Position numbers and translations under genes: made by a program | The notes under the pieces: generated by a model | Seen by the model: only the letters and a program-made list of their open reading frames with translations | The model's database searches: none | Told to the model about the DNA's origin: nothing | Shown here: one piece after another, positions 21,148 through 52,047 of the stretch | Layout of the letters: the number at the start of each line of letters is the position of its first letter | Numbering within the stretch: position 1 is the first letter of the stretch | Assembly: GCA_012515535.1 (NCBI GenBank) | Contig: JAAYYF010000077.1 | Span: forward strand, 1 to 64,000 | Length of the DNA stretch: 64,000 nucleotides | Origin: Deinococcales bacterium | GTDB taxonomy: Bacteria; Deinococcota; Deinococci; Deinococcales; Trueperaceae | Direction: 5' to 3'

Positions 21148-21150
21148 CGG

Positions 21151-24182: not shown

Positions 24183-24259
24183 CCGGTGCTCCACCCTTCC
24201 CGGGCTCGCCCGTCGTGACGGGGAGCCGCGACACCTACGGCTGTGCTGACAGCGTCAGT

Positions 24260-25255: not shown

Positions 25256-25869
25256 GCCTCGCGGGCCGGCACGCCCACCACGGTGGCGCCGTCGGGCACG
25301 TCCTTCGTCACCACGGCGCCCGCGCCCACCCTGCACCAGCGGCCCACGCGCCGCCCCGGCAGGACGGTGGCGCCGGAGCCGATCAGGCTGCCCTCGCCCA
25401 CGGTCACGCCGCCCGCCAGCACCGCCCCGGGCGCCACGTGCGCGAACGCCCCCACCCGGCAGTCGTGGTCCACCACGCAGGAGCTGTTGAGGATGGCGTG
25501 CGCGCCGATCGACGCGCCCGGCTGCACGTTGGCGAGCGCGAACACCACCGCGCCCTCGCCCACCTCGACCCCCTCGGCCACCGACGCCCGCGGGTGCACC
25601 ACGGAGGTCCACGCCGCGGCGGTCAGCTGGCCCGCCACCTGGTGGCGGACGGCGTTGTCGCCGATGGCGACCACCGCCCGCGCGCCTTCCCGGAGCGCGG
25701 CGACGGTGCCGACGACCGGCGCGCCCAGCACGTGGCTGCCGTGGCGCTCGGGGCGCTCGTCGAACAGGCCGGCGACCAGCAGCCCGGCCGCGCGCGCCGT
25801 GGCGACGATCACCTTGGCGTGCCCGCCCGAGCCCACGACCCACAGCTCCGCGGGCGTGGCTTCGCTCAT
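25252..25869 (-). CDS. NeuD/PglD-family sugar O- or N-acetyltransferase
   Basis: A left-handed beta-helix acetyltransferase of 205 residues. The N-terminal Rossmann part (ELWVVGSGGHAKVIVATARA) binds the sugar nucleotide. From about residue 85 hexapeptide repeats follow (HPRASVAEGVEVGEGAVVFA, then CVVDHDCRVGAFAHVAPGA), with the probable catalytic histidine in VVDHDC. In PglD the same fold N-acetylates UDP-4-amino sugars; in NeuD it O-acetylates sialic acid. Here either could supply the acyl group of the nonulosonate. It overlaps the DUF4910 stop (ATGA) and the glycosyltransferase start. Confidence 0.85.
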   Translation of the reverse strand: MSEATPAELWVVGSGGHAKVIVATARAAGLLVAGLFDERPERHGSHVLGAPVVGTVAALREGARAVVAIGDNAVRHQVAGQLTAAAWTSVVHPRASVAEGVEVGEGAVVFALANVQPGASIGAHAILNSSCVVDHDCRVGAFAHVAPGAVLAGGVTVGEGSLIGSGATVLPGRRVGRWCRVGAGAVVTKDVPDGATVVGVPAREA

Positions 25870-27176
25870 CGGCCGTCCCGCGCTTCCAGCAGGCCCGCGG
25901 CGCTCAGGGCGCGGGCGGCGTCCTGGACCGCCTCGAACGGCAGGCGGCTGCGCGCGGCGATCGCCAGCAGGTCGTGGTGCCCGTCCGCCAGGTTCAGCGT
26001 CCAGAAGAGCGCGTCGGCGGCGCCGACGTTGCGCGCGGCCACCGTCGCGGTCGGGTAGAGGCCGCGCCGGCCCAGTTGAGGTTCTCCGTACGGCACCCGG
26101 CTACTGTAGACGACGTTGCCGTCGAGCACGCGGCAGATGCGGTAGTAGGCGTCGAGGGTGCGCTGCACCGCCGCCAGGTCCACGAACGCCTTGTCGTCGC
26201 GCGAGGTGTGGTACTCGGGGTAGGTGCCGTACATCGTGCGCACGAGGCTGCCGACGGGCAGCCGGAAGCCGGGTGAGTTGTACTGCCGCTCGTCGCTCCC
26301 GGTGGGCGCGAAGTCGATCACGCGCGGCGGGCAGGGCTCGCCTTCGAGGTGGGCCAGCACGTGCTCCGCGGCGCGGTCGGCCAGCGAGTCGCCGGCGAAG
26401 GAGCGCTTGTAGGTCAGGCCCGCCGGCCCGCCGGTGCAGGTCACGACGTAGCCGGCCACCACCCGGTCGCGCAGCGCGGCGCCGCGCAGGTGCAGGTAGG
26501 CGATGGCGCCGATGGTCTCGGGCGCGAAGACGAAACGGTAGCTCAGCCGGCGCTCGGGGAGGCGCGCCAGGCGGGCGTAGAGGAACGCGGCCACCAACGG
26601 GCCCGACAGCTCGTTGTTCGCCATCGACGGGTGGCAGGTGTAGGTCGAGACCAGCACCTCCTGCTCGCTGGCGCCGGGCAGGAGGCACTCCGAGAGCGTG
26701 AGCGAGCCCGGCTCCAGGCGGCTGTCGATCACCACCTCGTACTCGCCGTCGGGCAGGGCCAGGCGCTGCTCGTGCGTCAGGCAGAAGCCCCAGCGCGGGC
26801 TGTAGTAGCTGGTCACGTAGGGGATGGCGTCGGGCTGCTCCGGCAGGCTGTACAGGTGCGGCTCGAGCTCGGCGCGCGAGAGGCGGCCACGGAACGGCAC
26901 GGAGTAGCCCACCAGGTGCAGCGGCTCGGCGGCGTAGTCGAGCAGACGCCGGCCGTCGGGCGCCACCAGGTAGGCCTGGTCGACGTTCCACTCCAGCGGC
27001 ACCTCCCAGTCGAACACCTGGGTGCCCGAGGGGACCTCGAGGCGCTCGAGCGGGAGCAGCTCCGCCAGCACGTCGTGGGTGCGGCGCACGCCGTCGCCGG
27101 TGATGCTCCGCGGCAGCGGCTGGAGGCGGTCGAACAGCCGTTCCAGCGCCGCGAGCTCTGCAGCCCTGTCTGGCAT
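25866..27176 (-). CDS. DUF4910/DUF2172 aminopeptidase-like protein with C-terminal winged helix
   Basis: A 436-residue protein of the DUF4910 family (zinc-peptidase-like fold with an inserted DUF2172 domain). Recognisable segments are LPRSITGDGVRRT at 22-34, FDWEVPLEWNVDQAYL, and STYTCHPSMANNELSGPLV with candidate metal ligands. FAPETIGAIAYL and FAPTGSDERQYNSPGFRLP are also present. The last 70 residues form a winged-helix segment (DLLAIAARSRLPFEAVQDAA). Such proteins are common in nonulosonate and flagellin-glycosylation loci, but I know of no assigned reaction. It starts at ATG with a TAAGAT box six bases upstream and no Shine-Dalgarno, so it is probably leaderless and the first gene of its operon. 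Confidence 0.8.
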   Translation of the reverse strand: MPDRAAELAALERLFDRLQPLPRSITGDGVRRTHDVLAELLPLERLEVPSGTQVFDWEVPLEWNVDQAYLVAPDGRRLLDYAAEPLHLVGYSVPFRGRLSRAELEPHLYSLPEQPDAIPYVTSYYSPRWGFCLTHEQRLALPDGEYEVVIDSRLEPGSLTLSECLLPGASEQEVLVSTYTCHPSMANNELSGPLVAAFLYARLARLPERRLSYRFVFAPETIGAIAYLHLRGAALRDRVVAGYVVTCTGGPAGLTYKRSFAGDSLADRAAEHVLAHLEGEPCPPRVIDFAPTGSDERQYNSPGFRLPVGSLVRTMYGTYPEYHTSRDDKAFVDLAAVQRTLDAYYRICRVLDGNVVYSSRVPYGEPQLGRRGLYPTATVAARNVGAADALFWTLNLADGHHDLLAIAARSRLPFEAVQDAARALSAAGLLEARDGR

Positions 27177-27182
27177 GGCGCC

Positions 27183-27188
27183 ATCTTA
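27183..27188 (-). promoter_or_regulatory. -10 box TAAGAT of the nonulosonate operon, leaderless arrangement
   Basis: On the minus strand TAAGAT is followed by GGCGCC and the ATG of the DUF4910 gene. The box sits inside the inverted repeat GCGCCA...TGGCGC. On the plus strand TATGAT at 27187-27192 could serve the divergent NodB-like gene. Confidence 0.5.
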
Positions 27189-27277
27189 TGATGTGGCGCA
27201 CAGCGCCCTGAGGTGGAGGTTCCCGTGACGGCCCGTCGGCGGCCGTCGTGGCGGGCGCGGCTCCGGGAGGCGGCTGC

Positions 27278-28612
27278 ATGGCCAACGAACTGCACGTGGT
27301 GCACTGCATCGACACCGAGGGGCCGCTCCACGAGTCGCTCGAGGCCACCTTCGAGCGCGTGGAGGCCATCGCCGGCGTGCGCCTCGCGCCCAGCCGCGCG
27401 ACCCTCGCCAAGCTGCAGCGCGCCGAGCTCGACCTGGGCGGCAAGGAAGAGGTGGTGCGCACCGTCGTCGCCGAGCGGCTGCTGGCCTACAACGACACCT
27501 GGGACAAGGTGGACGCCATGCTCGACGACATGATGAGCCCGGCGTACCGCCAGCGCTACGCCGACCCCGAGGGCCGCCCCTGGACCTACAACTGGTTCTG
27601 CGTGGACCACGTGGGGTACGACGTGAACCCGCGGCGCCGCGACATCGGCTACCACAACGTCTTCGACCGTTACGCCGCGCGCCTGCGCGACGGCCACGCG
27701 CCCGACGAGCTCCACTGGCACGCGCACCCCATGCCCACCTACCGCGAGGCGCACCGCAACGCCACCTCCTACCTGCGCTCGCCGCACGTGCTGGAGACCC
27801 TGGCCCGGCGCGTCATCGACCGGCGCTGGTTCCCGGTGGCGTTCCGCCCCGGCTTCCACGTGGAGCGCCCCGACAGCCACTGGCTCCTCGAGCAGTTCGT
27901 GCCGTTCGACTTCGGCAACCAGGCCATGCCGGGCGACGCCGCCGTCGAGGCGCAGGACGACGTGGCCAACGGCCGCTTCGGCGACTGGCGGCGCGCCGTC
28001 GACGACTGGTCGCACTACCACCCGCACCACGACGACTACCAGGCGCCCGGCGCGTGCCGCCGCGTGATCTTCCGCTGCCTCAACGTCGGCACGCGCTTCC
28101 GGCTCCTCGACGAGCACGAGGTGCGGCGCGCGTTCCGGCGCGCGGCGGCGGGCCACACCACGGTCCTCGCCTTCACGGACCACGACTTCCGCGACATGCG
28201 CCCCGACGTGCACGAGGTGCACACGCTCGTGACGCAGGTCGCCCGCGAGTTCCCGGAGGTGCGCTGGCGCAACTCGGGGGCGCTGGTGGCGGCGCGGGCG
28301 GCGCTCGGGCGCGAGCCCGGCGCGCCGCTCGAGCTGCGCGTCCGCGCCGAGCGCCGCGCCGGCTCGCTGCGCATCGAGGTCAGCGCCGACCGCGACATCT
28401 TCGGCCCGCAGCCGTTCCTGGCGGTCAAGAGCCACGACCAGCGCTACCTGCACGACAACCTCGACATCCAGGAGCCGTTCAGGCGCTGGAGCTACGTGTT
28501 CGACGAGCAGTCGTTCCGCCCCGAGGCCATCGAGGCGTTCGGCCTGGCGGCGGCGGACGCAGCCGGCCAGGTGGCGGTGAGGCTGTTCGGGCCCGACGGC
28601 GCCCCGCTGTGA
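27278..28612 (+). CDS. Divergent NodB/polysaccharide-deacetylase-like protein
   Basis: A 444-residue protein with a barrel-like N-terminal two-thirds. Features that recall NodB/CE4 enzymes are an early DTEG (VVHCIDTEGPLHES near residue 8), a histidine pair LHWHAHPMPTY near residue 150, and FRPGFHVERPDSHWLLEQ near 190. These resemble CE4 motifs 1 to 3 but deviate at key positions. The last quarter looks like a beta domain (LELRVRAERRAGSLRIEVSA). The start ATG has GGGAGG upstream. It is transcribed away from the nonulosonate operon and probably acts on the same glycan. The assignment is tentative. Confidence 0.5.
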   Translation: MANELHVVHCIDTEGPLHESLEATFERVEAIAGVRLAPSRATLAKLQRAELDLGGKEEVVRTVVAERLLAYNDTWDKVDAMLDDMMSPAYRQRYADPEGRPWTYNWFCVDHVGYDVNPRRRDIGYHNVFDRYAARLRDGHAPDELHWHAHPMPTYREAHRNATSYLRSPHVLETLARRVIDRRWFPVAFRPGFHVERPDSHWLLEQFVPFDFGNQAMPGDAAVEAQDDVANGRFGDWRRAVDDWSHYHPHHDDYQAPGACRRVIFRCLNVGTRFRLLDEHEVRRAFRRAAAGHTTVLAFTDHDFRDMRPDVHEVHTLVTQVAREFPEVRWRNSGALVAARAALGREPGAPLELRVRAERRAGSLRIEVSADRDIFGPQPFLAVKSHDQRYLHDNLDIQEPFRRWSYVFDEQSFRPEAIEAFGLAAADAAGQVAVRLFGPDGAPL

Positions 28613-28613
28613 G

Positions 28614-28670
28614 GCCGGGCGCGACGTGGCGGCGCGCTCGGTAGCGGGGCCCCCTGTAGCGGCGCCCGGC
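28614..28670. terminator. Hairpin between converging genes
   Basis: Arms GCCGGGCGC and GCGCCCGGC (9 bp) enclose 39 bases that include the inner palindrome GGGGCCCC, filling the gap between the NodB-like gene and the sugar transferase gene. It may terminate transcription from both sides. Confidence 0.4.
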
Positions 28671-28672
28671 GG

Positions 28673-29302
28673 CTAGCCCTCGCGCGACTCGGGCGCCGAG
28701 GTGCCCAGGAACTCGGGCATCGTCAGGTCGGCGGTGGCGTTCACGTCGGCGGCCCGCAGCACCTTCCAGGCGGTCGCCGCCAGGATCTTGGCGTCCAGCG
28801 CGAACGACAGCCGGTCGACGTAGTCGAGGTCGTAGGCGAACTTCTCGTCCCAGGAGATGGCGTTGCGGCCGTTGACCTGCGCCAGCCCCGTGATGCCCGG
28901 GCGCACGTCGTGCCGGCGCGCCTGCTCCCGCGAGTAGCGGGGCAGGTACTCCATCATCAACGGCCGCGGCCCCACCAGGCTCATCTCGCCCTTGAGGACG
29001 TTGAGCAGCTCGGGCAGCTCGTCGAGGCTGCTCCGCCGCAGGAAGGCGCCCACCCGCGTGGTGCGCAGGTGGTCGTCGAGCGGCTCGCCGCGCTCGTCGA
29101 ACGCCTCGCGCATGGTGCGGAACTTGAGCAGGGTGAAGGGCGCGCCCTTCAGCCCGGGGCGCTGCTGCCGGAACAGCACCGGCGAGCCGTGCGCCAGGTA
29201 GGTGGCCAGCGCCACCGCCAGCAGCAGGGGCGCGAGCACCACCAGCAGCAGGGCGGAGACGCAGACGTCCAGAACCCTCTTGCCCCAACGCCTGTAGAAC
29301 AC
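28673..29302 (-). CDS. Initiating sugar-phosphate transferase (PglC/WecX-type polyprenyl-phosphate glycosyl-1-phosphate transferase)
   Basis: Starts glycan assembly by moving a sugar phosphate from a UDP-sugar to undecaprenyl phosphate. The 209-residue protein has a single reentrant hydrophobic helix ([20 protein letters not shown] at 13-32). The family motifs follow: [36 protein letters not shown] with the catalytic D-E pair, LVGPRPL and [14 protein letters not shown]. The size fits the minimal PglC class rather than the longer WbaP class. The GTG start has GGGAGGGG upstream, and that region can pair with a complementary sequence directly after the preceding stop codon. It is the last gene of the ligase/glycosyltransferase operon. 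Confidence 0.93.
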
Positions 29303-38215: not shown

Positions 38216-39550
38216 TCACATCCGGCCGATCAGGTCCTTGATGACCATGGCGGCGGGGATGGCGATGCGGTCCGGGCGCTCGGGGTCGCGGCGCTCGATG
38301 CGCTGGTAGACCTGCTCGTTGACCTCGGCGATGGTGTCGCTACGGTTGAAGCTCGCTAGCTCGCCGATGGGAGAGATCGCCCAGTTGGCGTCGGGGGTGC
38401 GCGGCGTGTCGTCCGGTACGTCGAGGCCGGCCAGCGCTTCGCTGCCCCCCAGCGTGGGAGCGAAGTCGGTGCTGCCGTTGTCGATGACCTTGGTGGCGAT
38501 GGTGTTGGCTAGCGGCACGAGCGTGGTCTCGGGGGTGAACGGTGGGAACGGCTCCAGCGAGAGGTCGAAGAGGATCTGCGTGCTGTAGGCGGCGTACGAC
38601 AGCGGCGGCAGGTAATCGACGCTCGGGTTCTCGCGGGTGATGCCGTGGGCGAAGACGAGCCCAGGGCCGTAGGGCGTGTCGAAGCTCCTGAACTCGTGGT
38701 CGTTGAGGGCCTCGGCGAGGCGCGTGGCTTCCCGTAGGTAGGCCTCGTCGTCCGTGAGGCGGTAGCTGTACCAGAGGTAGCGGACGAGGCTCAGGTAGGG
38801 GTGCGTGAGGTTCTTGTAGATGAACGGGAAGCCCGTGGGCGTGCGGTTGCGCTCGCGCCACTTGGCCTCCCACTCCTGGAGGTAGTCGCTCCAGAAGTCG
38901 GCGCGTTCCTCGTAGTCGACGCCGCTCGGGCTCGTCTGGTCCTGGTTCTGGCGGAAGGTCCAGGCGACCTGCGCGACCATGCCGTGCGTCATGATCTCGT
39001 CCATGACGTGCTGGTCGTCGCCGTACCAGGTCCGGTCGCGGCGGTCGTGGAGCCAGCGCCAGTTGAGGTAGCCGTCGCCGTTGGTGTCGCGCAGCTCCTG
39101 GCGGGCGACCTGCATGGTCTCGTCGACCTTGTCGAGCAGGCGCAGGTCGCCGGTGAGGCGGAAGACGGTGAGGATGGTGGTGACGTCGGTGGCGACGGTG
39201 CGGCCGAGCTGGTAGAGGTCGCCGCGGCTGGCGGCGCGGCGCACGTTGGGGTAGCGCTCGGAGCTATCCAGGGCGTAGAGGAAGCGGCGGTACCACACCT
39301 GCGTCTCGGCCGGCAGCGAGCTCATGTCGAAGGCGGAGTCGCCCACCAGCGGGTAGGTCTCCGCGGTCGCGGAGGAGCGCGCGCACGAGACCAGCAGGCT
39401 GAGCAGCGCGACGAAGGCGAGCAGCCCGGACCGTGAACCGGTCCGAAGCTGCTCGCCTCGCCGCTCGCGGGCAGACGCGCTGCGCCGCGGGGCTCTCGAA
39501 GGTCTCCGCCGTTCGCCTGCGAGCAGGCGGCCGAGCGTTGGAGGGAACAT
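38216..39550 (-). CDS. Predicted lipoprotein with large conserved domain of unknown function (short paralogue)
   Basis: I do not recognise this family. The 444-residue protein has a long arginine-rich N-terminus and a hydrophobic stretch ending in LLVSC (Cys56), a plausible lipobox. A domain of about 375 residues follows. Conserved strings shared with the next gene include DTNGDGYLNWRWLH, WYGDD, HVMDEIMTHG, VDYxERADFWSDYL and LVPLANTIATKVIDNGS. The many evenly spaced aromatic/acidic helical segments suggest an alpha/alpha toroid like those of polysaccharide lyases and glycosidases, but that is inference. A TAGAAT box ends five bases before the ATG and there is no Shine-Dalgarno, so the mRNA is probably leaderless. 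Confidence 0.75.
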   Translation of the reverse strand: MFPPTLGRLLAGERRRPSRAPRRSASARERRGEQLRTGSRSGLLAFVALLSLLVSCARSSATAETYPLVGDSAFDMSSLPAETQVWYRRFLYALDSSERYPNVRRAASRGDLYQLGRTVATDVTTILTVFRLTGDLRLLDKVDETMQVARQELRDTNGDGYLNWRWLHDRRDRTWYGDDQHVMDEIMTHGMVAQVAWTFRQNQDQTSPSGVDYEERADFWSDYLQEWEAKWRERNRTPTGFPFIYKNLTHPYLSLVRYLWYSYRLTDDEAYLREATRLAEALNDHEFRSFDTPYGPGLVFAHGITRENPSVDYLPPLSYAAYSTQILFDLSLEPFPPFTPETTLVPLANTIATKVIDNGSTDFAPTLGGSEALAGLDVPDDTPRTPDANWAISPIGELASFNRSDTIAEVNEQVYQRIERRDPERPDRIAIPAAMVIKDLIGRM

Positions 39551-39555
39551 GGTGC

Positions 39556-39561
39556 ATTCTA
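39556..39561 (-). promoter_or_regulatory. -10 box TAGAAT of the short lipoprotein gene, leaderless arrangement
   Basis: TAGAAT (five of six consensus bases) on the minus strand is followed by GCACC and the ATG start. No ribosome-binding site lies between. Confidence 0.55.
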
Positions 39562-39627
39562 GAGGAACTCGCGCCTCGAGTGCAGTGTTTCGCCTCCAGG
39601 AGTGACTTTCTTGGCCTTACCGTCTCC

Positions 39628-41961
39628 TCAGTTGCCCAGGAGGCCGGCGATCACCATCGCGGCGGGGATGCCCGCGCGGGTGGGGCGTTCGGACGAACGT
39701 TCGAGCTTGTCGTAGACCTGCTGGTTGATGGAGCGGATCGTGCCGCTCTCGTCGAAGGCCGCGTACTCGCCGATCGGCCAGATCGCCCACTGCTCGACGG
39801 TGGCGCGGCTGCCGCTCGAGAGCCCGTAGCCGCCGATGGCCTTGCTGCCGCCGATGGTGGGGGCGAAGTCGCGGCTACCGTTGTCGATCACCTTGGTGGC
39901 GATGGTGTTGGCCAGCGGCACCAGGGTCGCTTCGCGGCTGAACTCCTCGAACGGCTCGAAGGCCAGGTCCATCAGCACCTGGGTGCTGTAGCCGGCGTAG
40001 TTCAGGGGGGCCAGGTAGTCGTGGGAGGAGTACTTCACGACGCCGTGGGGGAAGACGTAGCCCGTGCCGTTGGGGGTGGAGATGGCGCTGAACTGGCTGT
40101 CGTTCATCTCGGCGGCCATGCGGCGGGCTTCCTTGAGGTAGCCGTCGTTGCCGGTGAGGCGGTAGCTGTACCAGTGGAAGCGGAGCAGGTTGAGGTGGGG
40201 GTGGGTCAGGTGCTTGCTGATGAACGGGAAGCCGCTGGACTTGCGGTTACGGGCGCGCCACTTGGACTCCCAGTCGCGCAGGTAGTCGCTCCAGAAGTCG
40301 GCGCGCTCGCGGTAGTCGACGCCGTTGGGGCTCTTCAGGTCCCGGTTCTGCTCGAACGCCCACGCCACCTGCGCGACCAGACCGTGGGTCATGATCTCGT
40401 CCATGACGTGCTTGTCGTCGCCGTACCAGGCCGTCTCGCTGCTGCTGTGCAGCCAGCGCCAGTTGAGGTAGCCGTCGCCGTTGGTGTCGCGCAGCTCGGC
40501 GCGGGCCGCCTGCATCACCTCGTCGACGTGGTCGAGAAGCTGCAGGTCACCGGTGAGGCGGAACACGTTCAGGGTGGTGGTGACGTCGACGTTGACGGTG
40601 CGGCCGATCTTGTAGATGTCGCCACTGCGGGCCGCGCTCATGACGTTGGGGTACTGGCTGCTGTTGTTCAGGGCGGCCAGGAAGCGGTCGTACCAGACAC
40701 GGGTCTCCGACGGCAGCGAGCTCGCCTTGAAGGAGGGGTCGCCGACCATCTCGAGGTCGCCGCGGACCGGCGGGACGGGGTCGGTCGGCTCGGGGTCGGT
40801 GGGTTCCGGGTCGCTGGGCTTGGGGTCGGTGGGCTTGGGATCGGTCGGTTCCGGGTCGGTCGGTTCCGGCTCGGTGGGCTCGGGGTCGCTCGGTTCGGGG
40901 TCGGTGGGGGTGCCGGGCTCGACGGGCTCGGGCTCCACGACGACCGTGAGGGCGTCGGTGCTGGTGAGGTCACCGTCGGTGGCGCTGAGCTCCAGGACGT
41001 AGGTGCCGCTGGTCGAGAAGTCGGCGGTGGTGGTGCCCTCGTTGGCGTCGGCGAACGTGACGCTGCCGGGGCCGCTCACGACGGACCAGGTGAGGTCCAG
41101 GCGGCCGGTGGGCAGGCCGTCGTCGGAGGCCACGCCGCTCAGCTTCGCGCTGTTCGGGAGCGTGACCAGCAGGTCGCGGCCCGCGTCCACGGTCGGGGCG
41201 GCGTTCTGTGCCGGCGGCGCGGTGACGGTCACGCGCACGGTGTCGGACGCGGACTTCTGACCGTCGCTGGCGGTGAGGCGCAGGACGTAGCGGCCGGCGA
41301 CCGGGAAGCTGACGAGGGTCTGCGCCTGGTCGGCGTCGCGGAACGACGCTTCGGCCGGGCCGCGCTCGGTGGTCCAGCGGACCTCCAGGCGGCCGTCCCT
41401 CGGGCGGCCGTCGTCGGAGACCGAGCCCCTGATCTTCAGGTCGGTGCCGACGGTGGTGCTCTGGTTGGGGCCGGCCCGGACGCGCGGCGCCTTGTTGGCG
41501 GTGCGGTCGCCGTTGCGGACCTTGAAGCCCACCTTGACGAGCTGGGTCTCGGTGCCGCGCTTGCCGCGGAAGGTCACCTTGAAGACGACGGTGTGCGAGC
41601 CGTCCTCGAGGGTGGTGGTGTCGATCGACCAGCGGAACGGGGAGACGCTGGCCTGCGTGAGGGGCTCGGCGCCCTCCGCGGTCGGCAGGTCGTCGACGTA
41701 GATCTCCACGTCGATCACGTCGTCGCGTTCCGGCATCTGGATCTCGACGACGCCGGACACGGTCTGCGCCTGGAGCGCGACCTGGTCGCCGCTCTCGGAG
41801 AGCAGCCGCACTTCCGTGGGGTCGATGCGCGCCACGTCCTGGGGGGCCTGTACCGCTTGGTTACAGGCGGTGAGGACGAGCGCGATCAGGGCCGCGGCCG
41901 CGAGGTACACGTGCCGCCCGATGCGCCCGCGCAGGTTGGGGGATCGCCCATCGTGGTTCAA
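39628..41961 (-). CDS. Predicted lipoprotein: Ig/PKD-like domains, DPEPT linker and the same unknown domain (long paralogue)
   Basis: A 777-residue surface lipoprotein. The signal peptide ends in a perfect lipobox LTAC (Cys33). Residues of about 35-150 form an Ig-like beta domain. Two PKD-like domains follow (about 155-248 and 252-343; the second repeats TASDGQKSASDTVRV as SATDGDLTSTDALTV). Then comes a tandem Asp-Pro-Glu-Pro-Thr linker (344-398) and the unknown domain (about 400-777) shared with the preceding entry. No ATG or GTG precedes the signal peptide at a sensible distance. I choose TTG 41961, nine bases after AAGGAGG. The layout, with binding modules on a stalk before a helical domain, suggests an enzyme acting on the polysaccharide made by this locus. 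Confidence 0.8.
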   Translation of the reverse strand: MNHDGRSPNLRGRIGRHVYLAAAALIALVLTACNQAVQAPQDVARIDPTEVRLLSESGDQVALQAQTVSGVVEIQMPERDDVIDVEIYVDDLPTAEGAEPLTQASVSPFRWSIDTTTLEDGSHTVVFKVTFRGKRGTETQLVKVGFKVRNGDRTANKAPRVRAGPNQSTTVGTDLKIRGSVSDDGRPRDGRLEVRWTTERGPAEASFRDADQAQTLVSFPVAGRYVLRLTASDGQKSASDTVRVTVTAPPAQNAAPTVDAGRDLLVTLPNSAKLSGVASDDGLPTGRLDLTWSVVSGPGSVTFADANEGTTTADFSTSGTYVLELSATDGDLTSTDALTVVVEPEPVEPGTPTDPEPSDPEPTEPEPTDPEPTDPKPTDPKPSDPEPTDPEPTDPVPPVRGDLEMVGDPSFKASSLPSETRVWYDRFLAALNNSSQYPNVMSAARSGDIYKIGRTVNVDVTTTLNVFRLTGDLQLLDHVDEVMQAARAELRDTNGDGYLNWRWLHSSSETAWYGDDKHVMDEIMTHGLVAQVAWAFEQNRDLKSPNGVDYRERADFWSDYLRDWESKWRARNRKSSGFPFISKHLTHPHLNLLRFHWYSYRLTGNDGYLKEARRMAAEMNDSQFSAISTPNGTGYVFPHGVVKYSSHDYLAPLNYAGYSTQVLMDLAFEPFEEFSREATLVPLANTIATKVIDNGSRDFAPTIGGSKAIGGYGLSSGSRATVEQWAIWPIGEYAAFDESGTIRSINQQVYDKLERSSERPTRAGIPAAMVIAGLLGN
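40757..40932 (-). repeat. Coding tandem repeat for the DPEPT linker
   Basis: About ten imperfect 15-18-base units in the lipoprotein gene encode repeated DPEPT, DPKPT or DPEPS blocks. Codon choice varies between units, so it is an old repeat rather than a fresh slippage product, though unit number may vary between strains. Confidence 0.8.
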
Positions 41962-42283
41962 CTTCCCTATCCTCCTTGGCGTGCCGCCGTTGTCGCGACA
42001 CGCGTGGCCGCGATGTTCGGCGTTGTCCAAGGAAGACGAGGGGAAGGCGAGGAGAAACAACGCTCCGTCGGCCGGTTGCGCTACTGGCTCCGAACACCCC
42101 AAGCGCCCAAATACAGGGTGAACCTCAACGCCTCTGAACGGTGCGTGGATCTTGGTCCGTACCGGGAAGCTGTCTCGCCTCCCTGCACCGACAACAACCG
42201 TACGGCCTAGAGGGTGCACATGGCATTAAGACGCCATGAGTAAGATGAGCATCAGGTGTAAGTTGGGTGTGTGGCTTAGGAAC
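41962..42283. other. 322-base gap upstream of the long lipoprotein gene
   Basis: It separates the Wzz/kinase-like gene from the lipoprotein, both on the minus strand. It contains the AAGGAGG at 41971-41977 used by the TTG start, a small CATGGC/GCCATG hairpin near 42218-42237, and a weak minus-strand promoter candidate (TTCAGA, 17 bases, TGTATT, around 42112-42140). The frame of the lipoprotein remains open here, but the translation lacks family-like content. I see no riboswitch. Confidence 0.4.
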
Positions 42284-43852
42284 TCAGTGAGGGCGCACGC
42301 GCGACCGGGAGCTTACCGGTACCACCTCGGGCGGGACCTCCACGCGGTACTCCTGCGCCGGCGCGGGCCGGCCCCTGAGGCCCGTGGTCACGGCGGCCAC
42401 CAGCGGTACCCGCAACTGCCGTAGGCGCGCCAGGGCGGCGTCGAGGCGTCTGCGGCTGGCGCCGAGCGGGTCGATCGCCAGGATCACGGCGTCGGAGCCC
42501 TCGCTGAGCAGCAGGCCGTCGCCGGCGCTCGCCAGCGGCGCGGCACGCACCACGATCGTGTGGTACTCCGCCTTCCAGCGCTCGAGGCAGGCGGGAAGGC
42601 CGTTGAGCAGCGCGACGACGTCCTCGGCCGACCCCCGTTCGTCGTGCAGCAGCGCCAGGCGCGTGCGGCGGTCGAGGTGGACCCACAGCGGCCGCCGCCC
42701 GCCCTGGTGGCCGAGGGCGCAGGCGGTCAGCGGCAGGTGGTTCTGGGCCGGCACGCGGTAGCGACGCGCGATGGCGGGGCGCCGGATGTCGGCGTCCACG
42801 AGCAGCGTGCTGTGGCCCAGGCGCGCGAAGCTCTCCGCCACGGCCATGGCCGCGGCCGCCGTGTCGTCGCGCGCGCTCACGCCGGAGACCAGGATGGTCG
42901 AGGGGAGCGCCGCGTCGGTGACGCGGCGCAGGTTCGCCTGCAGCACCACCGCCACCTCGGGGCCGATGGCACCGCCGCGCACGCCGCGGGGCAGCTCGGC
43001 GACGACCGGCAGGCCGGTGGCGCGCTCCACGCCCTCCGAGGTGTACGGGCGTCCCTGGAACAGCTCGAGCACGAACATCAGCCCGTAGACGAGCAGCGCG
43101 CCGAGGAGCAGGCCCAGCAGCGCGAACATCGTGGGTGGCCTGCCCAGGCTCGTGGTGGGCGGCGTGGCGGCGCGCAGCACCTTGAGGCTGCTGGTGGCGT
43201 TGCTGGACAGCGCCAGGAGGCTGTCGAGCTGGTCGCGATGCCCGGTGAGCGTCTGCTGGATCGCTGCCACCTGAGCCGAGGCCGGTTGCTGCTCCTCGAG
43301 GTCCTGGAGGAGCAGCTGCTGCACCGCGATGCGTTGGGTGAGGAGCTGCGTCATCCGCTGCAGCTCGGACGTCAGGCGCCCCTGGTCCCAGGCCTGCAGC
43401 TGGGCTGCCACGGCGTTGGCCAGGTCGGCGGCGCGCTCGGGCGTGGTCTCGGTGACGTAGATGTAGAGGAGCTGTGGCACGGGCAGCACGTCGACCCTGA
43501 TGCCCCCGGCACGCAGGGCGTTGACGGCGGAGTCGGTCGCCGGCAGCCCGACGCTCTCGAGCGCGGCCGCCAGGACCGAGGAGTTCATCACCGCCACGCT
43601 GTAGGCGTCGACGTGCAGCGGCGAGAAGCTGACCTCCGGCAGGTCGAGGGTCCTGAGGTCCACTTGGGGGCTCTGCGCCACGAGGGCCACCTGAGCCTGG
43701 TAGACGGGCTCGGCCCCGCTCGCCCAACGGTAGAGGGCGCCCGCCAGCAGCAGGGAGGCGATCAACGCGAAGGGGAGCCCCCGACGTAGGAAGCCGAGCA
43801 GCTGACCGTGCGTCAGCTCGATGTCGTACGACGAACCTACCGTATCGCGCAT
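42284..43852 (-). CDS. Wzz-type chain-length protein fused to a degenerate tyrosine-kinase-like domain
   Basis: A 522-residue protein built like BY-kinases of capsule systems. It has a cytoplasmic N-terminus, TM1 (about 25-43), a periplasmic Wzz domain with coiled coil (160-215), a PPTTSLGRPP segment and TM2 (242-262), then a cytoplasmic P-loop-type domain. The Walker A' strand LLVDADIRRP (350-359) is intact. The expected GEGKST P-loop reads GVSARDDTA (324-332) with no lysine, and no C-terminal tyrosine cluster is present. ATP binding and kinase activity are therefore doubtful, and it may be a structural regulator only. The start ATG follows GAGGGG. A separate Wzz protein lies at 50674-52047. 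Confidence 0.85.
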   Translation of the reverse strand: MRDTVGSSYDIELTHGQLLGFLRRGLPFALIASLLLAGALYRWASGAEPVYQAQVALVAQSPQVDLRTLDLPEVSFSPLHVDAYSVAVMNSSVLAAALESVGLPATDSAVNALRAGGIRVDVLPVPQLLYIYVTETTPERAADLANAVAAQLQAWDQGRLTSELQRMTQLLTQRIAVQQLLLQDLEEQQPASAQVAAIQQTLTGHRDQLDSLLALSSNATSSLKVLRAATPPTTSLGRPPTMFALLGLLLGALLVYGLMFVLELFQGRPYTSEGVERATGLPVVAELPRGVRGGAIGPEVAVVLQANLRRVTDAALPSTILVSGVSARDDTAAAAMAVAESFARLGHSTLLVDADIRRPAIARRYRVPAQNHLPLTACALGHQGGRRPLWVHLDRRTRLALLHDERGSAEDVVALLNGLPACLERWKAEYHTIVVRAAPLASAGDGLLLSEGSDAVILAIDPLGASRRRLDAALARLRQLRVPLVAAVTTGLRGRPAPAQEYRVEVPPEVVPVSSRSRVRPH

Positions 43853-46039: not shown

Positions 46040-47113
46040 ATGAACTTCCGTAGGGTGGACGCAAGCCAGTTCGATTGGGAGGGGATGTGGAGGCTACGCG
46101 GCTGGGCGTTCGCGCATACGCGCGGCTGGCTCGAGTTCGCGAGCGGCGCCAGCAACGGCGAGCCGGTGTACGCGGTGCTCGAAGCGGAGGGCAGGGTGCT
46201 GGGCTACTTCATCGGCTCGATCGTCCGGCGCTTCGGCCTTCGGCTCCTGGCCAGCCCCGGCCTCGGCTGGACCACGCCCTACGTGGGGTTGGTGCTGGCC
46301 CCCGGCTGCTCGCGGGTGCAGGCGCTGAACGCTCTCGTGGACTTCGCCTTCGGCACGTGCGACTGCGTCCACATCGAGGTCGTCGACCCGGCCTTCACCG
46401 CCGAGGACGGCGCGCGCTCGGGCTTCGAGGTGTCGCCCGAGCTCCACCACGTGACCGACCTCTCCGGGACGCCGCAGGACCTGGAACGGCGCCTCTCCAA
46501 GAGCGTGCGGCGTTACGGGCGCCACGCGCTCCGCTACGGGCTCTGGGTCGAGGAGGGACGCCCCGAAGGGTTCCCAGAGGAGTTCAGCCAGCAGGCGGAA
46601 GAGGTGTTCACGCGACAAGGGCTGCGCCCGCCGCCCACCTACTCGCGCGACAACGTGCGACGGCTCATCGACACCTGCTACGCCAGCGGCGACCTGCTGC
46701 TCCTGCGCGTCAGGGGGCCGGACGGCGCCTGCCTGGCGACCGCCGCCTCCATCGGCGCGAACCACCTCGCGTACGGCTGGGGCACCGCCAGCCGCACCGA
46801 CGCGTGGCACCTGCGCCCGAACGAGCTGCTGTTCACCCACGAGCTCAAGGCGTGGCAGGCGCGTGGCGCCAAGGAGTTCGACTGGGGGCCGGTGTGGAGC
46901 TACAAGGTCAAGTACGGCGCGGAAGAGGTGCCCCGCTGGCGGTTGCATCGCTCACGGGCCCACTGGTTGCGGATCGGGCGTGAGCTGGCGCGCACGGCCC
47001 GCGACATGCGCCTAGAGCGCCTGTTCGGGGTCGGGGCCCAGGGCCCCGCGGCGCCATGGCGGCCGCCCTCCGGTGGCGAGGGCCGCGGCCCAGAGCGCGA
47101 GGCGGGAGCCTAA
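46040..47113 (+). CDS. FemAB/GNAT-fold aminoacyl- or acyltransferase-like protein (second copy)
   Basis: A 357-residue FemAB-like protein. Motifs include [20 protein letters not shown] near residue 30, [20 protein letters not shown], the basic [20 protein letters not shown] near 155, and [39 protein letters not shown] closes the set and matches the C-terminal GNAT signature in exopolysaccharide-linked FemAB proteins. The ATG has GGAGACC upstream. It equals the first copy in length but is clearly diverged, so it is an old duplication or separate acquisition. Its TAA overlaps the stop of rmlA on the other strand. Confidence 0.78.
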
Positions 47114-48060
47114 CCGGCGCCCGGGCGCGAGCTCGGCTGCCCCTCCGTCTGCAGCAGCTCCAGCAGGTAGCGGCCGTAATCGTTCGACCTCAGCGGGGCG
47201 GCCAGCCGTTCGAGCGCGGCGGCGTCGATCCAGCCCTGGCGGTAGGCGATCTCCTCCGGGCAGGCGATCTTCAGCCCCTGCCGCGCCTCGAGCGTCTCCA
47301 CGAAGTTGGACGCCTGCAGCAGGCTCTCGTGCGTGCCGGTGTCGAGCCAGGCCATGCCGCGGCCCAGCAGCTCGACGTTCAGGCGACCCTCGCGGAGGTA
47401 GGCGAGGTTCAGGTCGGTGATCTCGAGCTCGCCGCGCGCCGACGGCACCAGCTGCTTGGCCTGCTCGCTGACGTCGGCCGGGTAGAAGTAGAGGCCGGTG
47501 ACGGCGTAGCGGCTCTTGGGCCTGGCCGGCTTCTCCTCGATGCCGGTGACGCTGCCGTCGGCGTCGAAGCTGACCACGCCGTAGCGCTCGGGGTCCTTGA
47601 CCTGGAAGCCGAACACGGTGGCGGTGCCGCGGCGCGCGTTGGCGCGCTGCAGCTGGGCCGTGAGGCCGTAGCCGTGGAAGATGTTGTCGCCGAGCACCAG
47701 GGCGGCCTCGGCGCCGTCCAAGAAGCGCTCGCCGATCAGGAACGCCTGGGCGATGCCCTCGGGCTCGGGCTGCTCGGCGTACTCGAAGCGCATGCCCCAG
47801 CGCGCGCCGTCGCCGAGGAGCTCCTCGAACGCGGGCAGGTCGCGGGGGGTGGAGACGACGAGCGCCTCGCGGATGCCGGCCAGCATCAGCACCGAGAGCG
47901 GGTAGTAGACCATCGGCTTGTCGTAGATCGGCAGGAGCTGCTTGCTGATCGCCAGCGTGGCGGGGTAGAGGCGCGTGCCGCGGCCGCCGGCGAGCACGAT
48001 GCCGCGGCGGCTCGGCACCGCGCCGCCCGCCCCGGGCGCGCCCGTGCCTGGCGTGCTCAC
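47110..48060 (-). CDS. rmlA: Glucose-1-phosphate thymidylyltransferase
   Basis: Makes dTDP-glucose from dTTP and glucose-1-phosphate, the first step to dTDP-rhamnose. The 316-residue protein has the signature [16 protein letters not shown] near residue 21, [33 protein letters not shown] and [36 protein letters not shown] is also intact. It starts at GTG 48060, overlapping the rmlB stop (GTGA). About 20 residues precede the usual start, so a start closer to the signature is possible. Its end meets the FemAB-like gene with shared stop-codon bases. Confidence 0.95.
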
Positions 48061-49154
48061 GGCCGCGCCTCGCCGCCGCCGACCGTGCCTAGCCGGCCCA
48101 GGTCGTAGCGCGCGTCCTTGATCGCCGCCACCCAGCCCTGGTTGGCCAGGTACCACTCCACCGTGCTGCGCAGCCCCTCCTCGATCGGCACCTGGCGGCG
48201 CCAGCCCAGCTCGCGCTCGGCCGCGCTCGAGTCGACGGCGTAGCGGTGGTCGTGCCCCGGGCGGTCGGGCACGTAGGTGATCAGCTCGCGGTAGTCGTAG
48301 CCGGCGGGCGCCAGCTCGTTGAGCAGCCCCAGGAGCGCCTCCAGCACCGCGCGGTTGGTGAGCTCGGTGGCGCCGCCCATCAGGTACGTCCGGCCGGGCG
48401 TGCCCCGCCGCATGGCCAGCTCCAGCCCGCGGGCGTGGTCGTCGACGTGCAGCCAGTCGCGCACGTTGCTGCCGTCGCCGTACAGCGGCACGCTCTCGCC
48501 GGCGAGCGCCCGGGCCAGCGCCAGCGGCAGCAGCTTCTCGGGGAACTGGTAGGGGCCGTAGTTGTTCGTCGAGTGGGTCGTGATCGTCGGCAGCCCGTAG
48601 GTGTGGAAGTAGGCGTTCGCGAAGTGGTCGGCGCCGGCCTTGCTGGCGCTGTAGGGGGAGCGGGGCGCGTAGGGGGTGGCCTCGGTGAAGACGCCGCTGG
48701 CGCCGAGGCTGCCGTAGACCTCGTCGGTGCTGACGTTGACCAGGCGGAAGGCGGCGCGCTCCGCCTCGTCCAGCCCGCTCCAGTAGCGGCGCGTGGCCTC
48801 CAGCAGCCGGAGCGTGCCCAGGGTGTTGCTGAGCGCGAACGCCTCGGGCCCGTCGATGGAGCGGTCGACGTGCGTCTCGGCCGCGAGGTGGAAGACGCCG
48901 TCGGGGCGCTCCTCGTGCAGCAGTGCCTCGATGGCCGCCTGGTCGTTCACGTCCAGGCGTTCGAAGCGGTGGCGCGGGTCGTCGGCGACCCGCTCGAGGC
49001 GCGCGACGTCGCCGGCGTACGTCAGGCTGTCGACCGTGACGACGCGCGCGTCCACCTGCGTGACCAGGTAGCGCACGAGGGCGGAGCCGATGAAGCCGGC
49101 GCCGCCGGTGACCACGTACCTCAGCTGTCTATCCCCTTCGGCACCACGAAGCAT
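48057..49154 (-). CDS. rmlB: dTDP-glucose 4,6-dehydratase
   Basis: An NAD-dependent short-chain dehydrogenase-type dehydratase, second step of dTDP-rhamnose synthesis. The Rossmann motif [18 protein letters not shown] and [13 protein letters not shown] are present. The catalytic region reads [12 protein letters not shown] followed by YSASKAGAD with the YxxxK pair, and [16 protein letters not shown] is diagnostic. The length is 365 residues from ATG 49154; a shorter start at CTG near 49121 with AAGGGGA upstream is possible, because the signature begins only 14 residues in. A hairpin and a TATGAT box separate it from rmlC, so rmlBA may be transcribed on its own. Confidence 0.95.
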
Positions 49155-49233
49155 GCGTTCGAGGCCTCCCTCCGTGCCACTGGCTCGGGCCGCGCCCGAG
49201 GGCTCCCGCCGACTGTTGGAACGTTGCGACCGA

Positions 49234-49239
49234 ATCATA
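49234..49239 (-). promoter_or_regulatory. Possible -10 box TATGAT in front of rmlBA
   Basis: TATGAT (minus strand) lies 80 bases before the rmlB start and just after a GC hairpin that follows rmlC. No -35 match is seen. Confidence 0.35.
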
Positions 49240-49259
49240 GACGACGCCCGCGCGCCTCC

Positions 49260-49275
49260 GGGGCCCACAGGCCCC
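49260..49275 (-). terminator. GC hairpin between rmlC and rmlB
   Basis: GGGGCC and GGCCCC arms enclose a four-base loop eight bases after the rmlC stop. Together with the downstream -10 box it suggests a break between rmlDC and rmlBA. Confidence 0.45.
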
Positions 49276-49282
49276 CTGGGGC

Positions 49283-49849
49283 CTAGGCGTACCCGAAGTC
49301 GAACTCGGCCGCCTCCAGGCGCGGCAGCGCGGCGTCCTTGGGCGAGAGCGTGGGCTCGAGGCCCGGCGCCGCGTCCAGCCCCCAGTCGATGGCCAACGTC
49401 GGGTCGTCCCACCGCACCCCGCGCTCGGCGGCCGGCGCGTACGGCTGGTCGACCTTGTAGAGCACGTCGGCCACGTCGGAGAGCACCAGGAAGCCGTGCG
49501 CGAAGCCGGGCGGTACCCAGAGCTGGTGCAGGTTCTCGTCGTCGAGCACGGCCTTGACGTGCTGCCCGAAGGTGGGCGAGCCGCGGCGCAGGTCGACGGC
49601 CACGTCGAGCACGCGCCCGCGCGTCACGCCGACCAGCTTCCCCTGGGCGTGCGCCGCCAGCTGGTAGTGCAGGCCGCGCAGGGTGCCGCGCCCGGAGCGC
49701 GAGTGGTTGTCCTGCGCCCAGCGCGAGGGCAGCCCGGCGACCGCCGAGGCGTCGGCGCGCCAACGTTCCAGGAAGAAGCCCCGCGCGTCGCGGTGCACCT
49801 TCGGCACCAGCAGCTTGACGTCGGGGATGCTCTGCGGCACGAGCTCCAT
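49283..49849 (-). CDS. rmlC: dTDP-4-dehydrorhamnose 3,5-epimerase
   Basis: A cupin epimerase, third step of dTDP-rhamnose synthesis. The 188-residue protein shows DVKLLVPKVHRDARGFFLER at the N-terminus, and QDNHSRSGRGTLRGLHYQ with the catalytic histidine. LRRGSPTFGQH and LWVPPGFAHGFLVLSDVADV follow, then the tyrosine-containing YKVDQPYAP. All core residues expected for RmlC are present. It begins at ATG, one base from the rmlD stop codon. Confidence 0.95.
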   Translation of the reverse strand: MELVPQSIPDVKLLVPKVHRDARGFFLERWRADASAVAGLPSRWAQDNHSRSGRGTLRGLHYQLAAHAQGKLVGVTRGRVLDVAVDLRRGSPTFGQHVKAVLDDENLHQLWVPPGFAHGFLVLSDVADVLYKVDQPYAPAAERGVRWDDPTLAIDWGLDAAPGLEPTLSPKDAALPRLEAAEFDFGYA

Positions 49850-50677
49850 CTAGCTACCTCGCTCCCCCGGGGCGGGCGGGCGGTCGTCGGCCGCTACCCC
49901 GTCGTCCTCGTGCGCGGCTGCGGCGCCCCCGCTCCACGCCTCGCGCAGCCGCCGCCAGCGGCTCACGTCGAGCGACACGTCGTCCGGCAGCGCCACCCCC
50001 GCCTCGCGCTTGCTGGCGCGCTGCACGTCGGGCGCGCGGCGCCGCGCCAGCTCGAGGACGCTCTTGCGCTCGGTGGCCACGTGCAGGGTGTCGTAGGGGA
50101 CCGCGCCGGCCGCGAAGCGCTCGATCACCTCGGCGAGCAGCGGCGCGATCACGTCCACGTAGTCCTGCGACGTGAACAGGTCGTCGAACGCCTTCGGGTA
50201 CGGCCACTCGCGGGGCCGGAAGCTGGTGCGCACGACCAGCGCACGGTCGTAGCCCCGCGCCGCCTCCTCGGCCACGAGCTTCGTGAGGGCGTAGTAGTTG
50301 CGCGTCGGGCCGGGGGTGTCGTCCTCGCGGTAGCCGCCGCGGTCGCCGTAGAACACGTAGTCGGTCGAGACGTGCAGGAAGCGCGCGCCCGCCACGCGCG
50401 CGGCCGCCACCAGCCGGCGCGTGCCCTCCACGTTGACGCGCCAGCAGGCCTCGCGCTCGCGCTCGGCGCCGGCCACGTCGGTGTAGGCCGCGCAGTGCAC
50501 CACCAGCCGCGGCCGCAGGCGGGCGAAGCCGCGCGCGACGCTCGCGTCGTCGGTGACGTCCAGCTCGGCGCGGGTGGGGGCGACCAGGTGGGGGAGGAGC
50601 AGGCGCAGCTCGCGCCCGAGGCGGCCGCCGCCGCCCGTGAGGAGCGCCGCCCCGGGCGCCGGCCCGCTCTGGCTCAA
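49850..50677 (-). CDS. rmlD: dTDP-4-dehydrorhamnose reductase-like protein
   Basis: An SDR-fold reductase, last step of dTDP-rhamnose synthesis. The 275-residue protein has LLTGGGGRLGRELRLLLP, LVVHCAAYTDVAGAERE, HVSTDYVFYGDRGGY and the active-site YYALTK. The C-terminal third is shorter and more arginine-rich than in classic RmlD, so activity on another dTDP-keto sugar is possible. The start is TTG 50677, overlapping the TGA of the Wzz gene as TTGA. It sits directly before rmlC. Confidence 0.85.
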   Translation of the reverse strand: MSQSGPAPGAALLTGGGGRLGRELRLLLPHLVAPTRAELDVTDDASVARGFARLRPRLVVHCAAYTDVAGAEREREACWRVNVEGTRRLVAAARVAGARFLHVSTDYVFYGDRGGYREDDTPGPTRNYYALTKLVAEEAARGYDRALVVRTSFRPREWPYPKAFDDLFTSQDYVDVIAPLLAEVIERFAAGAVPYDTLHVATERKSVLELARRRAPDVQRASKREAGVALPDDVSLDVSRWRRLREAWSGGAAAAHEDDGVAADDRPPAPGERGS

Positions 50678-52047
50678 CGCTCGTCCGCCAGGCGCCCGTC
50701 GATGCGGTCGCTGGTGCGGCGCGGGTTGCCGCTCACCTGGTCGATCTCCAGCTCGCGCCCGTGCGGCCCGGGCCCCAGGTCGGGGTCGGGCGCGCGCACC
50801 GCGGCGCGCAGGAACACCACCAGCGTGGCCAGCAGGCCCGCCACCAGGGCCGCGGCCAGGGTGAGCGTGAGGCGGCTGCGCGCCTCGGGCTGGATGGGTG
50901 GCGTGGCGGGCACCACCACCTTGGCGGCGGTGCCGATCATCCCCTGCTGCAGGCGGATCAGGGGCGTCAGCGCGGACACGCTCTCGTAGGCGCGCAGCGC
51001 CGTGCGCCGCGCCAGCTCGAGCTGCTCGAAGCGCTGGTTCATCTCGGTGAGCTGCGTGCGCAGCGCGGCGTACTCGCCGTTGGAGCCGTTGAGGGTCACC
51101 CGCAGCTGCTCGCGCTCGGCCAGGTAGCCGGCCAGCTGGCTGGTGAGGGTCTCGACCTGGGTACGCGTCACGAGGGTGAGCAGGTCCTGCCCACCGGTGG
51201 TGGCGCCCGGCGGCAGCTGCGCCAGGGCGCGCTCGAGCTGCGCGGCGGTGCCCTCGTCGAGCGCCCCCGAGCCGACCATGGCGCGCAGCTGCGCCTCCAG
51301 GGAGCCGCTGCCCGTGCCCGACCGCGCCTCGAGGGCGGACTGGAGCAGGTCGCGCTGGGCCCGGCTCGAGGCGATCAGGTTGTCGAGCTCTGCCAGGCGC
51401 ATCATGGCGTCGCGCTGCAGCTGCAGGTGCACCGCGATCTGGGCGCCGACGGCGTTGCGGTCGTCCTGCTCGGCGAACTCGGTGAGCTGCTGGCGCACCG
51501 CGTTCAGCTCGGCCTCGCGCTGGGCGAGCTCGCGCGCCGAGGCGTCGGCGTTGGCGTTGACCGACTGCGACAGCGCGGCGGTGGTGGCCTCCACGGTGGC
51601 TTGCGCCCAGGCGTTGGCGCGCTGGGCGGCCTCCTGGGGGTCGGGGGCCGTGACCAGGTGCGCGACCGCGAGCTGGCCGCGCGCCTGCTGCGAGGTGTCG
51701 ATGGGGTTGAGCTCGAGCGAGCCGGCCAGCTCGCGCAGCCGCGCCACGTCGCTCTGGTTCACGCCGAAGGCGGCCGCCAGCACGTCGGAGCGGTGGGCGA
51801 TGGCCGCGTAGCTGCTGAAGCCGATGCCGGCGGGCGGCAGCAGCCAGGCGGCCTCCTCGCTGGTGGTGCTGGGGGCCGGCACGTTGACCTGCACGGTGGC
51901 GCCGGCCACGTAGCGGTCGGGGCGCGACCCCAGGTAGAGGTAGGCGGCGGCGCCCGCCACCAGCGCGGCCAGCACGATGGCCAGGAGGCCGGAGCGGAAG
52001 ATCAGGTAGAGCTCGCGCAGCGAGATCTCGTCACGAGGTTCGTACAC
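50674..52047 (-). CDS. Wzz-family polysaccharide chain-length determinant
   Basis: A 457-residue inner-membrane protein with TM1 (FRSGLLAIVLAALVAGAAAYL, about 17-37 in its core), a Wzz domain, long coiled-coil segments (about 150-360) and TM2 (LAAALVAGLLATLVVFLRA, about 402-420). A proline-rich segment IQPEARSRLTL precedes TM2, as in family members. It controls glycan length together with the polymerase. It has no kinase domain, unlike the protein at 42284. The GTG start has GGAGG upstream. It is the first gene of the unit continuing through rmlD and rmlC. Confidence 0.88.
   Translation of the reverse strand: MYEPRDEISLRELYLIFRSGLLAIVLAALVAGAAAYLYLGSRPDRYVAGATVQVNVPAPSTTSEEAAWLLPPAGIGFSSYAAIAHRSDVLAAAFGVNQSDVARLRELAGSLELNPIDTSQQARGQLAVAHLVTAPDPQEAAQRANAWAQATVEATTAALSQSVNANADASARELAQREAELNAVRQQLTEFAEQDDRNAVGAQIAVHLQLQRDAMMRLAELDNLIASSRAQRDLLQSALEARSGTGSGSLEAQLRAMVGSGALDEGTAAQLERALAQLPPGATTGGQDLLTLVTRTQVETLTSQLAGYLAEREQLRVTLNGSNGEYAALRTQLTEMNQRFEQLELARRTALRAYESVSALTPLIRLQQGMIGTAAKVVVPATPPIQPEARSRLTLTLAAALVAGLLATLVVFLRAAVRAPDPDLGPGPHGRELEIDQVSGNPRRTSDRIDGRLADER

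What the first reader, a model, noticed from the sequence alone, without database searches (positions are those of the whole stretch)
38216..41961. Tandem pair of paralogous lipoproteins with a large unrecognised domain in the polysaccharide locus
Two adjacent genes encode the same domain of about 375 residues, one right after a lipobox, the other on a stalk of Ig-like and PKD-like domains and a DPEPT linker. Long identical strings (NGDGYLNWRWLH, HVMDEIMTHG, LVPLANTIATKVIDNG) show strong constraint, which suggests an active site. Placed between chain-length and glycosyltransferase genes, they may be a surface lyase, hydrolase or epimerase for the local glycan. I could not match them to a known family.
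Basis: partly seen in the sequence, partly recalled or inferred. Interest (0 to 1): 0.6.

Follow-up and report, generated by a model that had tools for sequence, protein, structure and literature searches.

The report
Surface sugar-enzyme pair with c-di-GMP switch
Two neighbouring genes encode cell-surface proteins with a previously unnamed ring-shaped (alpha/alpha-toroid) domain that looks like a sugar-cutting enzyme, and a c-di-GMP-sensing RNA switch sits directly in front of the pair, suggesting that the bacterium ties remodelling of its own slime coat to its biofilm signal.

Summary
Two adjacent lipoprotein genes share a ~375-residue domain (64% identical). No Pfam, NCBIfam or PDB-sequence family matches it.

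The family has 1-7 copies in 11 of 111 Deinococcota genomes, all in one family (Trueperaceae; Truepera radiovictrix has 6), and 2 copies in each of two Chloroflexi MAGs. An AlphaFold2 model from 8 homologues (pLDDT 80, pTM 0.87) is all-helical. Its structural neighbours are almost all (alpha/alpha)-toroid carbohydrate enzymes (GH76, GH127, GH88/105, AGE, a polysaccharide lyase), but distant ones (best E 0.008, TM <0.5). Invariant polar residues lie mostly at one face.

A riboswitch precedes 8 family genes in 6 genomes (0.04 expected). Other c-di-GMP-II riboswitches in these genomes precede GH26, GH114 or beta-helix lipoproteins.

Best explanation: a new (alpha/alpha)-toroid family of surface glycan-cleaving enzymes in a c-di-GMP-II-controlled regulon. 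Substrate, reaction type and switch direction are unproven.

The parts
42062..42144 (-). c-di-GMP-II riboswitch aptamer (RF01786) between the Wzz-like gene and the lipoprotein pair
   Evidence: 70.2 bits against gathering score 53.5, full model 1-84
41958..42050 (-). Leader hairpin that pairs the Shine-Dalgarno (AAGGAGG, 41977-41971) with a CU-rich stretch 3' of the aptamer (TCTTCCTTGG, 42036-42027)
   Evidence: SD pairing probability 1.00 against 0.61 mean in shuffles, 0 of 200 reach it (fold)
39628..41961 (-). Large lipoprotein: signal peptide with lipobox LTAC, Ig-like and PKD stalk, DPEPT linker, C-terminal toroid domain; TTG start
40936..41763 (-). Ig-like domain plus two PKD domains of the stalk
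   Evidence: PF17957 (below cut-off), PF18911, PF22352
40753..40935 (-). Repetitive DPEPT/DPKPT linker
   Evidence: sequence
39631..40752 (-). Toroid domain of the large lipoprotein (modelled)
   Evidence: AlphaFold2 pLDDT 80.1, pTM 0.87 from 8 sequences; fold search
38216..39550 (-). Small lipoprotein: long n-region, lipobox LVSC, then the same toroid domain (38219-39349)
   Evidence: 77 bases after the large gene, same strand, so probably one transcript (inference)
42284..43852 (-). Wzz/tyrosine-autokinase-like chain-length gene just upstream of the riboswitch
   Evidence: weak NCBIfam matches to eps_fam and EpsF

Best explanation
The two genes encode surface lipoproteins whose shared domain is a new family of (alpha/alpha)-toroid carbohydrate-active enzyme, most likely a glycoside hydrolase (less likely a lyase or epimerase) that trims or releases the exopolysaccharide made or displayed by the cell. 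One copy sits close to the membrane, the other on a long stalk reaching into the coat. A c-di-GMP-II riboswitch in the leader senses c-di-GMP and controls translation through a hairpin that holds the ribosome-binding site. The pair is one arm of a wider c-di-GMP-II regulon of surface glycan-acting lipoproteins. Shown by computation: domain family, fold class, lipoprotein signals, riboswitch aptamer, predicted sequestered ribosome-binding site, repeated linkage of riboswitch and domain. Inferred: catalysis, reaction type, substrate, co-transcription of the second gene, response to c-di-GMP and its direction.
For: Fold: model pLDDT 80, pTM 0.87; the 50 best PDB matches listed are, by their names, (alpha/alpha)-toroid proteins, all carbohydrate-active except a few linalool dehydratase-isomerase entries, top hit GH76 endo-mannanase with probability 1.00. 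Weak profile hit to an MGH1-like/amylo-alpha-1,6-glucosidase domain over the TGD...DGDGYL stretch (E 6.5e-5; hhalign probability 80.5; target identified). Invariant polar residues R51, D93, D113, E162, K164, W165, R168 and H184 (model numbering) fall toward one face by helix order. A Chloroflexi homologue is fused to LamG and PA14 domains. Context: NeuB, cytidylyltransferase, PglD-type acetyltransferase, rhamnose genes, sugar transferase and glycosyltransferases in the window; NeuB, UDP-sugar dehydrogenase, DegT, Bac_transf or polysaccharide-synthesis genes beside homologues in G004, G009, G015 and a Chloroflexi MAG. Regulation: riboswitch 0.6-1.6 kb upstream of the domain on the same strand for 8 family genes in 6 genomes; 0.037 expected, P about 8e-17; T. 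radiovictrix's only listed c-di-GMP-II site and both of G025's are at this family. Regulon: other sites precede GH26, GH114 and beta-helix lipoproteins; in eight genomes searched the only strong GH114 genes (2) both follow a riboswitch. The GH114 enzyme Ega3 disrupts Pel- and GAG-dependent biofilms (PMC10485009). The genome has 15 GGDEF domains.
Against: Fold matches are weak (best E 0.0076, TM at most 0.47). No sequence match to any catalogued enzyme family, no recognised catalytic motif, no coordinates to inspect the cleft. Truepera and G025 copies mostly lie outside polysaccharide loci. Linalool dehydratase-isomerase shows that the fold alone does not prove a sugar substrate. Many family copies have no riboswitch.
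Confidence: 0.6

Rival explanations
1. The domain is a polysaccharide lyase or uronate epimerase: an alpha/alpha toroid that works by proton abstraction with conserved Asn, His, Tyr and Arg on an acidic glycan.
For: Invariant or near-invariant N, H, Y and R residues; toroid lyase Smlt1473 and AGE/YihS isomerases among fold matches; acidic-sugar genes (NeuB in window and G004, UDP-sugar dehydrogenase in G009).
Against: Better fold matches to hydrolases (GH76, GH127, GH88/105); four invariant Asp/Glu are as conserved as the lyase-type residues; no lyase family matched by profile.
Confidence: 0.2
2. A non-catalytic toroid: a surface glycan-binding or coat-organising protein that anchors the polysaccharide to the cell.
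For: Lipoprotein anchor, stalk, recurrent FG-GAP_2 partner gene; the third paralogue in this genome is truncated and has lost several conserved residues yet keeps its riboswitch.
Against: Strongly conserved polar residues toward one face in most members; co-regulated genes are enzyme families.
Confidence: 0.12
3. The domain acts on something other than carbohydrate (terpenoid, lipid or peptide), as linalool dehydratase-isomerase does with the same fold.
For: Linalool dehydratase-isomerase among fold matches.
Against: Polysaccharide loci, fusion to LamG and PA14, glycosidase co-regulon.
Confidence: 0.04

Closest known systems
GH76 endo-alpha-1,6-mannanase (PF03663; PDB 6shm, 5agd)
   Same: alpha/alpha toroid of similar size; best fold match (E 0.0076, probability 1.00); one family member touches PF03663 at E 0.63
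   Different: 10-13% identity; the adjacent Asp-Asp whose mutants are called inactive in GH76 entries is not kept: only the second Asp is invariant here
Unsaturated glucuronyl hydrolases GH88/GH105 (PDB 4q88, 4ce7)
   Same: alpha/alpha toroid, among the highest TM-scores of the list (up to 0.47)
   Different: no sequence or profile match
MGH1-like / amylo-alpha-1,6-glucosidase toroids (PF22422, PF06202)
   Same: weak profile similarity over TGD...DGDGYL
   Different: covers about 80 of 374 positions only
c-di-GMP-II riboswitch (RF01786)
   Same: complete aptamer, 70.2 bits
   Different: tandem c-di-GMP-II systems are reported mostly before surface anchor protein genes in Paraclostridium and relatives (PMC9481103); here the class fronts glycan-enzyme-like lipoproteins with a sequestered ribosome-binding site
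PelA/Ega3-type exopolysaccharide hydrolases (GH114 and relatives)
   Same: works-like comparison only: matrix-cleaving enzymes encoded with polysaccharide genes; true GH114 lipoproteins lie in the same riboswitch regulon
   Different: different fold: (beta/alpha)8 barrel for Ega3 (PMC10485009)

Membership tests
c-di-GMP-II riboswitch (RF01786) | covariance-model score above gathering threshold over the whole aptamer | tested here: met
   70.2 bits, model 1-84, cutoff 53.5
c-di-GMP-II riboswitch (RF01786) | ligand-dependent change of gene expression | not testable with these tools
   equilibrium folding keeps the SD closed with P1 formed or blocked, so direction is undetermined
(alpha/alpha)-toroid carbohydrate-active enzyme | alpha/alpha toroid fold | tested here: inconclusive
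   confident all-helical model and only alpha/alpha-toroid names among the 50 listed PDB matches, but no match with E below 0.001 or TM above 0.5; strong support, short of proof
(alpha/alpha)-toroid carbohydrate-active enzyme | catalytic residues clustered in the cleft | tested here: inconclusive
   most invariant polar residues toward one face by helix order, no coordinates available
(alpha/alpha)-toroid carbohydrate-active enzyme | activity on a carbohydrate | not testable with these tools
   needs a biochemical assay
GH76 | match to PF03663 | tested here: not met
   one of 26 members at E 0.63
GH76 | adjacent catalytic Asp-Asp | tested here: not met
   position before the invariant Asp varies across the family
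Polysaccharide lyase (toroid families) | profile match to a lyase family | tested here: not met
   no Pfam lyase family at E<=1
Bacterial lipoprotein | signal peptide with lipobox cysteine | tested here: met
   read from the sequence of both proteins; no signal-peptide program was run

The most novel reading that the evidence does not exclude
A previously undescribed family of exopolysaccharide-cleaving toroid enzymes, placed by a c-di-GMP-II riboswitch in a surface-glycosidase regulon (toroid, GH26, GH114, beta-helix) by which Trueperaceae link an RNA-sensed biofilm signal directly to translation of coat-remodelling enzymes.
Probability: 0.45. Interest if true: 0.7.

Novelty: new variant of a known kind. 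Interest (0 to 1): 0.52.

Why it matters
In well-studied bacteria, c-di-GMP usually reaches coat-cleaving enzymes through protein effectors (general knowledge). Here a c-di-GMP-binding RNA appears to sit directly on a whole set of surface glycan-acting lipoproteins, one of them in an enzyme-like family with no entry in the libraries searched. If confirmed it would give a new candidate biofilm-active enzyme family with testable genes in a sequenced, cultivated species (T. radiovictrix), and a simple readout for c-di-GMP control in a phylum where I found little written on riboswitch targets.

Tried and rejected
Single-sequence AlphaFold2 model: useless (pLDDT 40). Alignment A1 was too diverse for the collection scan; a narrower one worked. 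PDB sequence search with the single protein and the profile: nothing. Viral contigs and plasmids: no relatives; viral fold library uninformative. Rejected: a transcription terminator as expression platform (one terminator-like match, at chance level); the sigma-70 promoter scan was empty. A switch in which the 3' strand of P1 competes for the anti-SD was suspected from reading the leaders, but constrained folding changed SD pairing in none of the eight family leaders (one GH114 leader, L136, did change), so the direction of control is left open. The quoted string LVPLANTIATKVIDNG as an active-site sign: rejected, it is specific to this duplicate pair. GH76 membership: rejected (see test). Relatives fetched by the genome search were not handed to the structure predictor because its rule lists other sources.

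Full report
OBSERVATION. The two ORFs exist as described. The larger gene starts at TTG 41961, behind a strong AAGGAGG; both proteins have lipobox signals. The shared domain is 63.8% identical. The stalk carries an Ig-like region (below cut-off) and two PKD domains. The pair are sisters on the family tree (100/99), so a tandem duplication in this lineage; long identical strings are partly recency, and the family-wide signal is the 19 invariant columns among 26 sequences.

FAMILY. Pfam, NCBIfam and PDB sequences do not contain the domain. Homologues occur in 11 of 111 Deinococcota genomes, all in the window's own family. One of them, G017, has exactly the 3,260,398 bases of Truepera radiovictrix RQ-24 (PMC3072082) and six copies; the family is therefore taken as Trueperaceae (inference from that size match and from the 'uncultured Truepera' record titles). 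Two Chloroflexi MAGs carry two copies each; their long copies are 1448 aa and at least 1737 aa, and the one scanned has LamG and PA14 domains. A scan of 350 Chloroflexota genomes found only the known one plus a weak hit to a glycogen-debranching-type toroid.

FOLD. The 50 listed PDB matches are, by name, alpha/alpha-toroid proteins, nearly all carbohydrate enzymes, led by GH76. None has E below 0.001 and TM stays below 0.5: fold class supported, family new. By helix order, invariant R51, D93, D113, E162, K164, W165, R168 and H184 lie toward one face, while R65, D69 and Y205 (around the TGD turns) lie at the other. This is a coarse test.

RIBOSWITCH. Rfam finds a complete c-di-GMP-II aptamer at 42062-42144 on the coding strand. 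Between it and the start codon a hairpin pairs the Shine-Dalgarno completely. Among the eight riboswitch-linked family genes the SD is predicted mostly paired (0.71-1.00) in seven and 0.57 in the eighth; against dinucleotide shuffles the effect is clear for the window (0 of 200) and G009 (5 of 200), modest for G025_C36 and G010 (15 and 18), weak or absent for the rest. Forcing or blocking P1 does not change SD pairing in the family leaders, so the leader looks default-closed and the direction of control is not predicted.

LINKAGE. The riboswitch lies upstream on the same strand of a family gene in G000 (twice), G004, G009, G010, G017 and G025 (twice); about 0.037 such coincidences are expected. 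For G017 it is the only listed site in the genome, for G025 both sites. Riboswitch-linked copies are scattered over the family tree (at least 6 changes forced), so the linkage is either old with losses or repeatedly gained.

REGULON. In the window's own genome the other resolvable sites precede a truncated third paralogue plus an FG-GAP_2 lipoprotein (C189), a beta-helix/DUF1349 protein (C114, tandem aptamers) and a lipoprotein cut by the contig end whose remaining part is weakly GH26-like (E 0.006) (C92). In relatives, sites precede GH26, GH114 and beta-helix lipoproteins. Counting listed sites by locus in G000, G004, G005, G009, G017 and G025, 17 of 19 resolvable loci front one of the four classes (my count; the G005 GH26-like protein was placed by visible similarity only; one G005 site is not listed). 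Literature searches of the held library found no paper joining a c-di-GMP riboswitch with glycoside hydrolases and biofilm, or with GH26. Absence from that library is not proof of novelty.

CONTEXT. The window is a polysaccharide locus with nonulosonic-acid-type genes (NeuB, cytidylyltransferase, PglD-like acetyltransferase), rhamnose genes, sugar transferase and glycosyltransferases. G004 has a matching NeuB beside its pair; G009, G015 and the Chloroflexi MAG G111 have other polysaccharide genes. Truepera copies sit among unrelated genes, so the context is common but not universal.

MECHANISM. Most likely (0.6): membrane-near and stalked copies of a glycan-cleaving toroid enzyme, translated according to c-di-GMP level. 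Low-signal expression would favour release from a biofilm, high-signal expression would favour coat maturation; the data do not choose.

VERDICT. Observation confirmed; interpretation partly supported and extended. Activity, substrate and switching direction remain to be shown.

Noticed in passing
L121 (G000:C189) 3247-4881: Third paralogue in this genome: toroid domain truncated (~270 of 374 positions) with several conserved residues changed, still behind a c-di-GMP-II riboswitch and beside the genome's only FG-GAP_2 gene; possibly a degenerating enzyme.
   Followed up: partly
L116 12171-13511, L118 10895-12118, L121 4992-6338: An FG-GAP_2 repeat gene (PF14312) lies next to or between toroid genes in three loci; of four genomes of the window's genus that were tested, those with the toroid (G000, G004) have it and those without (G001, G005) do not.
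   Followed up: partly
G000:C92 748-1008 and G000:C114 4610-4830 (L122, L123): Tandem c-di-GMP-II aptamers in front of a weakly GH26-like lipoprotein and a beta-helix protein; tandem arrangements recur in G004, G005 and G001.
   Followed up: partly
L138 and L142, leaders of beta-helix genes: Leader hairpins pair the start codon in the stem, a different way of masking initiation from the window's leader.
   Followed up: partly
window 19912-29302 and 47110-52047: Nonulosonic-acid-type and rhamnose polysaccharide genes (NeuB, cytidylyltransferase, PglD-like, RmlC, RmlD, Bac_transf) suggest an acidic surface glycan.
   Followed up: partly
L137 5893-6708, L141 362-1186: Unrecognised ~272-residue lipoprotein behind c-di-GMP-II riboswitches in G004 and G005; no Pfam match for the G004 one.
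   Followed up: no
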